From positions 1,133,403-1,197,402 of the forward strand of contig MOYA01000001.1 in assembly GCA_001899315.1 (NCBI GenBank): a DNA stretch of 64,000 nucleotides. The letters are read 5' to 3'. Positions within the stretch are counted from its first letter, which is position 1, and every line of letters begins with the position of its first letter. Positions 50,708 through 54,615 of this stretch are shown here, in pieces. Below the pieces are notes generated by a model, which worked only from the letters and a program-made list of their open reading frames with translations, was not told where the DNA came from and did not search any database. The position numbers were made by a program, and so were the translations under genes. Source of the stretch: Candidatus Obscuribacter phosphatis (GTDB taxonomy: Bacteria; Cyanobacteriota; Vampirovibrionia; Obscuribacterales; Obscuribacteraceae).

Positions 50708-51499
50708 TTATTTAGCAGCGGTACTAAGAGCCAGAGCCTTGACCACTTCTTCATGAATTTTGCCGTTTGTGGCCAAAATATGACCGCTTGTCATATCTAA
50801 AGGACCATCTTCTAAGTTGGTCACTTTACCGCCCGCCTCTCTGACAATCAAAGAACCGGCTGCCACGTCCCAGGGGGCCAGTTTCCTTTCCCAGAAACCA
50901 TCTAGACGGCCGCTTGCCACAAAACAAAGATCAAGGGCGGCGGAGCCGTCGCGTCTGACGCCATGGCACATATTGGTGATGGTGCGAAAGCTGTCCATAT
51001 TGTGGTGCACGCTTTTTAAAGTATCCGGCGGGAAGCCGGTGGCAAGCAAGCTGGTATCAAGGGTGGTGCGGTTCGAGACCGCAATTTTCTCGCCGTTCAA
51101 AGTGGCGCCTTGACCCTGGCTGGCCACAAATATCTCTGAGGCGATGGCGTTATAGACCACGCCTAGAACCATTTCGCCTTTTTCTTCCACACCAATAGAG
51201 ACACAAAAGAATGGATAGCTATGGGCGAAGTTGGTGGTGCCGTCTAGAGGGTCGATAATCCAACGTCGGGCACTTTCTTGCTTACCCGACTCGGCGCCGC
51301 TTTCTTCCGCCAAAAAGGCATCATTGGGGAAGCTAGCTTTGATTGTTTCGATGATGAGAGCTTCGCTGGCTTTATCAACATCGGTGACTATGTTAAATGC
51401 ACTCTTGTAGTCAAGTGATTTTACCTTGCCTACTCTAGACTTTTGCAATTCGCCCGCTCTCAGCGCTGCTTCTCTTGCTACTTTCTCGATTTTTTCCAT
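50708..51499 (-). CDS. suhB: Inositol monophosphatase family protein
   Basis: 263 residues. The metal-binding motifs of the IMPase fold are all present: EESG at about 65-68, DPLDGTTNFAHSYPFFCVSIG at about 83-103 and the C-terminal APWDVAAGSLIVREAGG. These Mg-dependent enzymes remove phosphate from inositol monophosphate, and bacterial SuhB also acts on rRNA transcription complexes. The substrate here is not provable from sequence. It is transcribed divergently from the ileS leader. The TAA stop faces the CTAG tract, and two more in-frame stops follow within nine codons. Confidence 0.92.
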   Translation of the reverse strand: MEKIEKVAREAALRAGELQKSRVGKVKSLDYKSAFNIVTDVDKASEALIIETIKASFPNDAFLAEESGAESGKQESARRWIIDPLDGTTNFAHSYPFFCVSIGVEEKGEMVLGVVYNAIASEIFVASQGQGATLNGEKIAVSNRTTLDTSLLATGFPPDTLKSVHHNMDSFRTITNMCHGVRRDGSAALDLCFVASGRLDGFWERKLAPWDVAAGSLIVREAGGKVTNLEDGPLDMTSGHILATNGKIHEEVVKALALSTAAK

Positions 51500-51592: not shown

Positions 51593-51621
51593 TTGACGAC
51601 CATCATTGGCTTATTTATGCT
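51593..51621 (+). promoter_or_regulatory. Candidate sigma-70 promoter of the ileS leader
   Basis: TTGACG and TATGCT are separated by exactly 17 bases. Transcription would begin near 51628, about 27 bases before the leader-peptide ATG and 132 before ileS. Confidence 0.6.
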
Positions 51622-51654
51622 TATTATCCCGAGCAAGATTTAGGGATTAGCTGC

Positions 51655-51690
51655 ATGTCGACTCTATTGGTGTCCGCAATCATTATCTGA
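51655..51690 (+). CDS. Ile-rich leader peptide of the ileS attenuator
   Basis: An 11-codon frame, ATG to TGA, encodes MSTLLVSAIII. The last three codons before the stop are ATC ATT ATC, all Ile. AGGGA lies eight bases upstream of the ATG, a good ribosome-binding site. The peptide is short, has no other likely function and ends 10 bases before a hairpin pair that precedes ileS. Amino-acid-specific leader peptides of this kind control trp, his, ilv and pheST operons by ribosome stalling. The finding rests on arrangement; translation has not been shown. Confidence 0.75.
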   Translation: MSTLLVSAIII

Positions 51691-51700
51691 GACTAATATA

Positions 51701-51745
51701 GCTGGCGAAAGTGTCGCCGGCAGAGATGTCGGCGTTTTTGTTTTT
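51701..51745 (+). promoter_or_regulatory. Mutually exclusive hairpins (attenuator) before ileS
   Basis: Antiterminator: GCTGGCGA (51701-51708) pairs over eight bases with TCGCCGGC (51714-51721), one G.T pair. Terminator: CGCCGGCA (51715-51722) pairs over eight bases with TGTCGGCG (51727-51734), with a GAGA loop and then TTTTTGTTTTT. They share 51715-51721 and cannot form together. No gene on this strand ends upstream, so a terminator here makes sense only as control of ileS. Confidence 0.78.
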
Positions 51746-51759
51746 ATCAGGAGAAAACT

Positions 51760-54615
51760 ATGTCAGAGAAGCCCGACTATAAGGTCAATCTTCCCAAAAC
51801 CGCTTTTCCGATGAAGGCTAATAGTGCCGTAAGGGAAGTGGAGATTCAAAAGGGCTGGGACGAGAACGGGGTTTATGAGGCTAATCTCAAAAAGAGAACC
51901 GACGCCCCCAAGTATGTTCTGCATGACGGTCCCCCCTATTTGTCTTCGAGCAAGATTCACATAGGTACGGCTCTCAACAAGATTCTCAAAGATATCATCA
52001 CCAAGTACAAGGCACTAAAGGGCTTCTATTCGCCCTATGTGCCTGGTTATGACAGCCATGGCTTGCCCATCGAAAATGCCGTGCTCAAAGATGTAAAAGG
52101 CGGTCGCGCCGCCCTGACACCGGTTGAGCTGAGACAGCGTTGCCGGGCTTTTGCTCTCAGCAATTTGAAAGGGCAAGAGACTAACTTCAGACGCCTCGGT
52201 GTCTGGGGCAACTGGGAAAAGCCGTATATCACTCTCGATCAGCATTTCGAGGCTAAACAGATAAGAGTCTTTGGTAAGATGGCCGCTAAGGGCTATCTTT
52301 ATAAAGGGCTGAAGCCGGTCTCGTGGTGTCCTACCTGTGAAACCGCCTTGGCTGAAGCAGAAGTTGAGTATGCCGACCATAATTCACACTCAATCTATGT
52401 CAAGTTTTTGGTGGACAAAGAAGGCAGCAAAGAGCATTACGCCAAATTGCCCGCCGCCGTAAAAGATAAAGAAGTGGCCTTTGTCATCTGGACCACTACT
52501 CCCTGGACCCTTCCTTCCAACCTCGGTATAGCACTCAATAAAGACTTCAACTATCAGTTCTTGCAAGTGGAAGGCGAACCAAGCATTCTTGTTATCGCCG
52601 AAAGCTTGAAGCAGGCTTTCTTGGCTGCCATCGGCAAAGCTGAAAGCAAGGTGGAAGTATTAGCCCAGGCTCTAGGTCATGAACTGGAGCTTTTAGAGAC
52701 CAAGCATCCTTTCTTAGATAGACTCTCAAGAGTAATCAACGGCGATCATGTCACCGCCGAAGCCGGTACCGGTTGTGTGCATACCGCACCCGGTCACGGT
52801 CCCGACGACTTTATCATCGGTAAAGTCTACAATTTGGGTGTTGTCTCGCCACTCGATGGTCGCGGCATATTCACCAAAGAGGGCGGCATTTTTGAAGGGC
52901 AGCGTTATGACAAAGCCAACCCCTTGGTGGTCGAGCATCTCAAAGAAAAGCAAGCCTTGCTTGGGCACAGCACTTTCAACCATTCATATCAGCACTGCTG
53001 GCGGTGCAAAAAGCCTCTCATCTTTAGAGCCACCGAACAGTGGTTCGCCTCGGTGGAAGGCTTCCGCAAACGCGCCCTAGAGTGCATCGATACTGTGGAA
53101 TGGCTGCCCAATAGCGGACGCAACCGCATCTTCAACATGGTCGAAAACCGTTCTGACTGGTGCATAAGCCGTCAGAGAGCCTGGGGCGTGCCGATACCGG
53201 TCTTTTATTGCAAAGGCTGCAGCGAACCGCTAATGTCTGATCAAAGCATCGAAAGAGTGGCTGCCGTCTTTGATAAAGAAGGTTCAGACTCTTGGTGGGA
53301 GCGCGAACCCTCGTACTTCTTGCAAGGGCTCTCGTGCAAATGCGGTAGCACCGACTTCATCAGAGAAACCGATATCATGGATGTCTGGTTCGATTCAGGC
53401 GTCACCCATGCGGCAGTGCTCGATGAAAGACCAGAACTGGGTGGTACTCCTTGCGAACTTTATTTGGAAGGTTCCGACCAACACCGCGGCTGGTTCCAAT
53501 CTTCGCTTTTGACAAGCGTAGCGGTCAGCGACCGGGCACCATACAAGACCGTTCTTACCCATGGTTTTGTCGTCGATGAAAGCGGCCGCAAAATGTCTAA
53601 GTCGGTCGGCAATGTGGTCGAGCCCGATGAAGTGATCAAGCAATATGGCGCCGATGTTTTGAGACTCTGGGTGGCTTCGGTCAATTATACCGACGACATT
53701 CCAATCGGCAAAAACATGCTCGTGCAACTGGCCGATGTCTACAGAAGACTGCGCAACACCGCCAGGTTCCTCCTCGGCAACTTGAGTGATTTTGATCCTG
53801 CCGTCGACAAAGTCGATAAGTCTAAACTATCATCTCTCGATCGTTTTGTACTGCACAGGCTCAATGAAGTAGTCGGTGAAGTGACCCGTGATTTCGATCG
53901 CTTCGAGTTCTTCAAGTATTATCAGCTTTTGCAAAACTTCTGCGGTGTAGATCTCTCTGCCTTCTATTTCGACATAGTCAAAGACAGGCTCTATACCTCG
54001 CATCCTAAAGACGAGGCAAGAAGAGCTGTGCAGACTGTGCTTTGTGAAGTGCTGCATACTTTGGTGCGTCTGTTGGCACCGGTCACCCCGCACCTGGCTG
54101 AAGATATCTGGCAACATTTAAGTGAGCCAATCAAGCAATCTTTCGGCAATCAAAGCTCGGTACTGCTTACTGATTATCCGGTTGTAGACGCCTCGTTGGA
54201 GGACAAAGAAGCCGCCGCCTATTGGTCTGACCTGATGGCTGTGCGCTTGACCGTCAACAAAGCCCTCGAACAGGCAAGAGCGGCCCGTGCCATCGGCAGT
54301 TCGCTTGAAGCCACTGTGGTGATGTCATTTGAAGACAAAGAAAAAGCAGCCAAGATCAAGAAAGTGGAAAAAGATCTAGCCACTGTTTTCATCACATCTG
54401 GTGCCCAGGTCTCAGACAATGGTCTGCCTAAAGATGGTGCTGAAGTTATTTCAACTGTAAGCGAAGACGGCTTGACCGTTGCCGCTTACAAAGCATCGGG
54501 CGACAAATGCGCCCGCTGTTGGAAATATACCGGCGATGTCGGCTCCAAGACCGGCGGCGACAATCAGTTCGGCGACCTCTGCGGCTTCTGTGCCGATGTA
54601 GTTGCAAGACTATAA
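51760..54615 (+). CDS. ileS: Isoleucyl-tRNA synthetase
   Basis: 951 residues, bacterial type. SSSKIHIGTALNKI (HIGH-equivalent HIGT, about 67-70) and GRKMSKSVGN (KMSKS, about 611) are the class I signatures. The CP1 editing region (WTTTPWTLPSNLGIAL; GTGCVHTAPGHGPDD), tRNA-binding helices and a C-terminal zinc finger (CARCWKYTGDVG...CGFCADVV) are all present. A GGAG six to seven bases before the ATG lies downstream of the attenuator terminator. No T-box is seen. Its stop codon is in the tandem repeat that continues to about 54735. Confidence 0.97.
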   Translation: MSEKPDYKVNLPKTAFPMKANSAVREVEIQKGWDENGVYEANLKKRTDAPKYVLHDGPPYLSSSKIHIGTALNKILKDIITKYKALKGFYSPYVPGYDSHGLPIENAVLKDVKGGRAALTPVELRQRCRAFALSNLKGQETNFRRLGVWGNWEKPYITLDQHFEAKQIRVFGKMAAKGYLYKGLKPVSWCPTCETALAEAEVEYADHNSHSIYVKFLVDKEGSKEHYAKLPAAVKDKEVAFVIWTTTPWTLPSNLGIALNKDFNYQFLQVEGEPSILVIAESLKQAFLAAIGKAESKVEVLAQALGHELELLETKHPFLDRLSRVINGDHVTAEAGTGCVHTAPGHGPDDFIIGKVYNLGVVSPLDGRGIFTKEGGIFEGQRYDKANPLVVEHLKEKQALLGHSTFNHSYQHCWRCKKPLIFRATEQWFASVEGFRKRALECIDTVEWLPNSGRNRIFNMVENRSDWCISRQRAWGVPIPVFYCKGCSEPLMSDQSIERVAAVFDKEGSDSWWEREPSYFLQGLSCKCGSTDFIRETDIMDVWFDSGVTHAAVLDERPELGGTPCELYLEGSDQHRGWFQSSLLTSVAVSDRAPYKTVLTHGFVVDESGRKMSKSVGNVVEPDEVIKQYGADVLRLWVASVNYTDDIPIGKNMLVQLADVYRRLRNTARFLLGNLSDFDPAVDKVDKSKLSSLDRFVLHRLNEVVGEVTRDFDRFEFFKYYQLLQNFCGVDLSAFYFDIVKDRLYTSHPKDEARRAVQTVLCEVLHTLVRLLAPVTPHLAEDIWQHLSEPIKQSFGNQSSVLLTDYPVVDASLEDKEAAAYWSDLMAVRLTVNKALEQARAARAIGSSLEATVVMSFEDKEKAAKIKKVEKDLATVFITSGAQVSDNGLPKDGAEVISTVSEDGLTVAAYKASGDKCARCWKYTGDVGSKTGGDNQFGDLCGFCADVVARL

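What the first reader, a model, noticed from the sequence alone, without database searches (positions are those of the whole stretch)
51593..51759. Candidate Ile-sensing transcription attenuator before ileS
The leader has a promoter (TTGACG-17-TATGCT), AGGGA, an 11-codon frame ending in three consecutive Ile codons (ATC ATT ATC) and a TGA, then two overlapping 8-bp hairpins, the second a terminator with a T-tract just before the ileS ribosome site. If tRNA-Ile is uncharged, a ribosome stalled on the Ile codons leaves 51701 onward free for the antiterminator. A ribosome that reaches the stop covers the start of that arm and favours the terminator. No T-box motif is seen. Leader-peptide control is established for pheST and for amino-acid operons. 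I know of no case for ileS in this lineage.
Basis: partly seen in the sequence, partly recalled or inferred. Interest (0 to 1): 0.9.

Follow-up and report, generated by a model that had tools for sequence, protein, structure and literature searches.

The report
Isoleucine-sensing leader switch before ileS
In a family of non-photosynthetic cyanobacterial relatives, the gene for the enzyme that loads isoleucine onto its tRNA is preceded by a tiny isoleucine-rich reading frame and two competing RNA hairpins that very probably switch the gene on when charged isoleucine tRNA runs short; this control type is classic, but it appears new for this gene and this branch of life.

Summary
The window is from a Vampirovibrionia (Melainabacteria) genome. 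In its family, 33 of the 47 genomes whose ileS upstream region I read (15 genera) carry the same design before ileS: a short reading frame with 2-4 Ile codons in its last eight, a stop codon 3-13 nt before an antiterminator arm, an overlapping terminator with a T-tract, then ileS. Leader peptides differ wholly in sequence but keep the Ile codons (15 genera: 50 Ile observed, 4.0±2.3 in shuffles, 0/2000). Both hairpins occur in 33/33 and show compensatory change. The distance from the Ile codons to the antiterminator is nearly constant. A modelled ribosome at the stop destroys the antiterminator; one on the Ile codons spares it. No T-box was found in 146 genomes of the class. A second synthetase gene of the family, proS, has proline-rich leaders in seven genera. 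This is therefore ribosome-mediated transcription attenuation of ileS: a known mechanism on a new gene and lineage. It was not tested by experiment. In the window's own genome the stop-codon masking is borderline, because the arm begins 13 nt past the stop.

The parts
51593..51621 (+). Promoter: -35 TTGACG (51593-51598), 17 nt, -10 TATGCT (51616-51621)
   Evidence: Consensus scan; TTGACG-17/18-TAT(C/G/T)CT found at the matching place in most relatives that have the leader
51642..51646 (+). AGGGA, candidate ribosome site of the leader frame, 8 nt before its ATG
   Evidence: Sequence
51655..51690 (+). Leader peptide frame MSTLLVSAIII*, ATG to TGA
   Evidence: Ile-rich frame at the same place in 33 genomes of the family, this one included
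51679..51687 (+). Control codons ATC ATT ATC (three Ile), 22, 19 and 16 nt before the antiterminator arm
   Evidence: the same 22/19/16 nt spacing in G001 of the same genus although the rest of the frame differs
51694..51696 (+). Second in-frame stop TAA, matching in position the only stop of the G001 leader
   Evidence: inference from the two sequences side by side
51701..51721 (+). Antiterminator hairpin: arms 51701-51708 and 51714-51721, 8 bp, -14.5 kcal/mol
   Evidence: paired in 92.8% of cells over 20 genomes, covariation above all 500 shuffles
51715..51734 (+). Terminator hairpin: arms 51715-51722 and 51727-51734, 8 bp, -13.2 kcal/mol, excludes the antiterminator
   Evidence: 95.6% of cells paired, 4 pairs changed on both sides
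51735..51745 (+). T-tract TTTTTGTTTTT of the terminator
51749..51753 (+). AGGAG, ribosome site of ileS
51760..54615 (+). ileS, isoleucine--tRNA ligase, the controlled gene
   Evidence: TIGR00392, 954 bits against cut-off 621

Best explanation
A ribosome-mediated transcription attenuator that senses charged tRNA-Ile and controls ileS. RNA polymerase starts just after the promoter, near 51628, and makes the leader frame, which is translated at once. If charged tRNA-Ile is scarce, the ribosome stalls on the Ile codons; the antiterminator arm 16-22 nt ahead stays free, pairs with the arm it shares with the terminator, and transcription reads on into ileS. If tRNA-Ile is charged, the ribosome runs to the stop, hides the first arm, the terminator forms and the transcript ends before ileS. 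More synthetase then restores charging. Shown by sequence comparison: the parts, their conservation, the pairing and the spacing. Inferred: translation of the frame, stalling, termination in vivo and the direction of the response.
For: 33 of the 47 family genomes read here (15 genera) have the whole element. Ile codons number 50 against 4.0±2.3 in shuffles (0/2000), and Ile is the most or joint most frequent residue in the last eight codons in 32 of 33. Leader peptides are otherwise unrelated between genera (MSTLLVSAIII, MSVRNIIRTIIIEC, MYTSIIIPT...IIIIGK). The mutually exclusive hairpins are in 33/33, with antiterminator -8 to -22 and terminator -10 to -20 kcal/mol. Covariation scores exceed all 500 shuffles for both hairpins. 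The last Ile codon to arm distance is 15.6±2.0 nt; stop-to-arm and Ile-to-stop distances compensate (Spearman -0.59; variance of the sum 4.7 against 14.5 expected). Modelled with a footprint of 12 nt beyond the A-site codon, a ribosome at the stop breaks the antiterminator in 30 of 33, while one on the main Ile run leaves it intact. The promoter is conserved. The gene upstream (50708-51499) is divergent, so this terminator serves no other plus-strand gene. No T-box in 146 genomes of the class. proS of the same family has Pro-rich leaders and terminator-like hairpins in seven genera (27 Pro of 138 codons in seven leaders, p about 1e-9).
Against: No expression data. In G000 and G002 the arm starts 13 nt past the stop, so masking by a terminating ribosome works only with a footprint of at least 14 nt. 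In genera g12, g23 and a few others the terminator is favoured at equilibrium even with the antiterminator arm free, so the switch there must be kinetic. The element is missing in about eight genera of the family and in single genomes of genera that have it, so it is dispensable. The spacing correlation is not corrected for relatedness, and within g1 it may reflect a moved stop codon in an inherited spacing. The 33 leaders were picked out by their Ile frame; the shuffle test does not correct for the 14 genomes without it.
Confidence: 0.9

Rival explanations
1. A tRNA-binding riboswitch of the T-box type: uncharged tRNA-Ile itself binds the leader and stabilises the antiterminator.
For: T-boxes control ileS in Firmicutes (established knowledge) and, in translational form, in Actinobacteria (PMC1262725).
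Against: No Rfam match in the window; 0 of 146 genomes of the class have a T-box, while controls rang; the room between the expected transcript start and the terminator, under 90 nt, is taken up by the leader frame.
Confidence: 0.02
2. A constitutive attenuator: the terminator only sets a basal level, and the Ile-rich frame is unrelated or merely aids translation of ileS.
For: In some relatives the terminator is favoured at equilibrium whatever the ribosome position; leader frames have been proposed to raise expression by reinitiation (PMC4833913).
Against: Does not explain why unrelated leader peptides keep Ile codons at a near-fixed distance from the antiterminator in 15 genera, nor the Pro codons before proS. 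The leader stop lies about 70 nt before ileS with a terminator between, too far for the 10-11 bp reinitiation of that paper.
Confidence: 0.05
3. A protein (IleRS itself or an RNA-binding regulator) binds the antiterminator or terminator and sets read-through; the leader frame is secondary.
For: Arm sequences GCTGG/CCAGC are strongly conserved over the family; E. coli ThrRS represses its own mRNA (established knowledge).
Against: Arm conservation follows from two overlapping stems sharing one arm; genus g12 uses a different antiterminator sequence; this again leaves the Ile codons unexplained.
Confidence: 0.03

Closest known systems
pheST leader attenuator of Escherichia coli and other gamma-proteobacteria
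   Same: Leader peptide rich in the cognate amino acid, alternative antiterminator and terminator, controls the synthetase for that amino acid (established knowledge; named in PMC1262725)
   Different: Different amino acid, gene and phylum; no Rfam leader family matches the window
Predicted trpS and leuS attenuators of Streptomyces (PMC1262725)
   Same: Classical leader peptide attenuators predicted before synthetase genes
   Different: Trp and Leu, Actinobacteria; in that phylum ileS was found under a translational T-box instead
Histidine leader peptides of hisS and hisZ in bacilli (PMC2965389)
   Same: Leader peptide attenuation of a synthetase gene outside Proteobacteria and Actinobacteria
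   Different: His, Firmicutes; occurs beside T-boxes, which were not found in this class
ileS leader CDS (CCNA_03934) of Caulobacter crescentus (PMC4117421)
   Same: A short frame before ileS
   Different: Named there only as a negative control construct; the text that I could search gives no Ile codons and no attenuation mechanism for it; alpha-proteobacterium
T-box before ileS (Firmicutes, Actinobacteria)
   Same: Same gene, same signal (charging of tRNA-Ile), same logical outcome
   Different: Senses tRNA directly by RNA and has no leader peptide; not found here

Membership tests
Ribosome-mediated transcription attenuator (classical leader peptide type) | Promoter upstream, so that the leader is transcribed with the gene | tested here: met
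   Conserved TTGACG-17/18-TAT(C/G/T)CT; transcript start not measured
Ribosome-mediated transcription attenuator (classical leader peptide type) | Short reading frame with codons for the amino acid of the controlled gene near its end | tested here: met
   33 genomes, 15 genera, 50 Ile against 4.0 in shuffles
Ribosome-mediated transcription attenuator (classical leader peptide type) | Two mutually exclusive hairpins, the second an intrinsic terminator before the gene | tested here: met
   33/33, covariation
Ribosome-mediated transcription attenuator (classical leader peptide type) | Geometry: ribosome on control codons leaves the antiterminator arm free, ribosome at the stop covers it | tested here: met
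   Met in 30 of 33 at a footprint of 12 nt; in the window's genome only at 14 nt or more
Ribosome-mediated transcription attenuator (classical leader peptide type) | Protector (1:2) hairpin between the leader frame and the antiterminator arm | tested here: inconclusive
   A TATTGGT/ACTAATA pairing is predicted in the window; conservation over relatives not tested
Ribosome-mediated transcription attenuator (classical leader peptide type) | Read-through depends on charging of the cognate tRNA and on translation of the leader | not testable with these tools
   Needs reporter or RNA data
T-box riboswitch (RF00230) | Match to the T-box covariance model | tested here: not met
   No match in the window; 0 of 146 genomes of the class, controls positive
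Rfam leader families (Phe, Trp, His, Leu, Thr and others) | Match above the gathering score | tested here: not met
   0 matches in the window

The most novel reading that the evidence does not exclude
This family, which has no detectable T-boxes, uses leader peptide attenuation as its own way of tying synthetase genes to tRNA charging: Ile codons before ileS and Pro codons before proS. In the proS version the leader frame begins 6-9 nt after the -10 box, so it would be read from a leaderless message without a ribosome site.
Probability: 0.65. Interest if true: 0.65.

Novelty: new member of a known kind. Interest (0 to 1): 0.52.

Why it matters
A 2016 survey states that there is no reliable data on the attenuation mechanism in cyanobacteria (PMC4833913). 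This adds a comparatively well supported case in the phylum Cyanobacteriota, on a gene (ileS) for which the known RNA control is the T-box. With proS it suggests that leader peptides do here the work that T-boxes do in Firmicutes. The natural variation in spacing, with 33 leaders, makes the geometry of ribosome stalling and masking directly testable.

Tried and rejected
Rfam on the whole window: nothing. Energy of the whole leader against shuffles: not unusual (z -0.39), as expected for competing folds. T-box: not found in the class. Cognate leaders before valS, leuS, serS, thrS, pheS, tyrS, trpS and ilvB in the up to ten genomes looked at, judged by eye: nothing convincing. Ile leaders outside the family: none with a terminator in one genome each of 20 other families of the phylum, no terminator in the three order-level relatives, none seen in the Gastranaerophilales and others. 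Papers: no classical ileS attenuator found in the searches; the library holds open-licence papers only. The spacing correlation was not counted as independent proof, because in g1 a stop codon seems to have moved within an inherited spacing. A first pass read minus-strand loci in the wrong orientation; it was redone correctly.

Full report
Where it is. The window is part of contig C1 of a 5.5 Mb genome; among the named relatives of its ileS are records titled Candidatus Melainabacteria. The genome belongs to a family of 50 held genomes in 24 genera. ileS (51760-54615) is a clear isoleucine--tRNA ligase. It is separated by about 260 bp from a divergent inositol-monophosphatase-like gene (50708-51499), so a plus-strand terminator in the gap can only act on ileS transcripts.

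The observation. By itself the Ile content is only a 1-in-40 event in shuffles, and the fold energy is ordinary.

The comparison. I read the upstream region of ileS in 47 genomes of the family. In 33 of them, from 15 genera, the same order recurs: short frame, Ile codons (2-4 in the last eight), stop, antiterminator, overlapping terminator, T-tract, ileS. Between genera the peptides have nothing else in common. Examples are MSTLLVSAIII (window), MSVRNIIRTIIIEC (same genus), MYTSIIIPT, MFSRAAIIITS, MLHPQQACGTGIIIIVQ and MSTLFIFSDNDNFRSIKRAAIIIIGK. With one leader per genus, Ile codons number 50 against 4.0±2.3 in dinucleotide shuffles, 0 of 2000. In only one of 33 leaders was another residue more frequent than Ile in the last eight codons; in three another residue tied with it. 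One genome, G070, has the terminator but no Ile frame.

The hairpins. Both structures fold in all 33 leaders. On an alignment of 20 leaders the antiterminator is paired in 92.8% of cells and the terminator in 95.6%. Covariation scores exceed all 500 shuffles for both, and sliding the partners by 1-3 columns lowers them strongly. The support is stronger for the terminator (4 pairs changed on both sides) than for the antiterminator (2 pairs). Genus g12 uses a different antiterminator sequence but keeps the switch.

The geometry. The last Ile codon of the run lies 15.6±2.0 nt before the antiterminator arm over 15 genera, while the stop moves (3-13 nt before the arm); the two distances compensate. 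In the window and in G001 of the same genus the Ile codons lie at exactly 22, 19 and 16 nt, although the stop lies at 13 nt in one and 7 nt in the other. The window's second in-frame TAA (51694-51696) is where G001 has its only stop. When RNA up to 12 nt beyond the A-site codon is taken as covered, a ribosome at the stop breaks the antiterminator in 30 of 33 leaders, and a ribosome on the main Ile run leaves it intact. In the window's genome this needs 14 nt or more, at the upper end of usual toeprint values (established knowledge), so its shut-off may be weaker. In several genera the terminator wins at equilibrium even with the arm free; there the outcome must depend on the antiterminator forming first, as the order of transcription allows.

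Promoter and distribution. TTGACG-17/18-TAT(C/G/T)CT is found before the leader in most relatives. On an IleS tree the presence of the leader needs at least four changes by strongly supported branches; an early origin in the family with several losses is the simplest reading (inference). Outside the family it was not found: no terminator in three order-level relatives, nothing in the Gastranaerophilales and other loci printed, and none in one genome from each of 20 other families of the phylum. T-boxes were not found in 146 genomes of the class although control genomes rang.

A second synthetase. Upstream of proS (TIGR00409 type, in 26 of 50 family genomes) seven genera carry a short frame with Pro codons followed by a terminator-like hairpin: MMNAADRRPPATPESLWG (G001, same genus as the window), MLQHLKNPPAPVRFLPEAESCVA, MKLARPPHSPPY, MFRNSTPPAPSNPTIPVG, MVKLSFSAPAPNPANPASRWADLSIYISR, MHTHVTFGPPPSPRPRTTG, and a weaker one in G003. 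Seven leaders (G003 left out, two from g7) hold 27 Pro in 138 codons (p about 1e-9 against an assumed 5%). Their ATG lies 6-9 nt after a CATAAT-like -10 box, so these frames seem to be translated from leaderless messages. The proS hairpins were not tested for covariation, and the automatic terminator pick failed in some of them. The window's own genome lacks this proS type. No cognate leader was evident before valS, leuS, serS, thrS, pheS, tyrS, trpS or ilvB in the genomes looked at.

Conclusion. The best reading is a ribosome-mediated transcription attenuator of ileS that answers to charged tRNA-Ile. The kind is classical (pheST; predicted trpS and leuS in Streptomyces, PMC1262725; hisS in bacilli, PMC2965389). 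The gene and the phylum are new as far as the held papers show; a 2016 survey states that there is no reliable data on attenuation in cyanobacteria (PMC4833913), and the only ileS leader frame found named is a Caulobacter CDS without a stated mechanism (PMC4117421). What is shown is sequence, conservation, pairing and spacing; translation, stalling and termination in vivo are inferred.

Noticed in passing
L191, L169, L178, L189, L188, L182, L180, L175 and other g23 loci, upstream of proS: Pro-rich leader frames followed by terminator-like hairpins before proS in seven genera of the family; a probable second cognate leader peptide attenuator.
   Followed up: partly
Same proS loci, region between -10 box and leader ATG: The proS leader ATG lies only 6-9 nt after the -10 box (TTGACA-17-CATAAT), so the leader frame seems to be at the very 5' end of the message (leaderless).
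   Followed up: partly
Upstream of ileS -35 in genera g5, g7, g11, g14, g18, g23: Conserved motif close to AATAAGAATCRTTAACGG a little upstream of the -35 box, also in genomes without the leader (G008, G015, G019); possible operator or upstream promoter element. Not found in the window's genus.
   Followed up: partly
L194, L200, L201, L202 between divergent leuS and tyrS: Recurring near-palindrome around GCTAAGAATCTTAGC in the leuS-tyrS gap, possibly a shared operator.
   Followed up: no
L127 (G070, upstream of ileS): Terminator CGCCAGCGCCAGACGCTGGCG before ileS without an Ile leader frame, in a genus whose other members all have it; a decayed leader or an assembly fault.
   Followed up: no
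Genomes G000, G001, G007, G011, G028: No acetolactate synthase over the TIGR00118 cut-off, so several members with the ileS leader may be unable to make isoleucine; only weaker homologues were found.
   Followed up: no
Window 51688-51696: Two in-frame stops TGA GAC TAA end the leader; the second matches the stop of the same-genus relative G001.
   Followed up: yes
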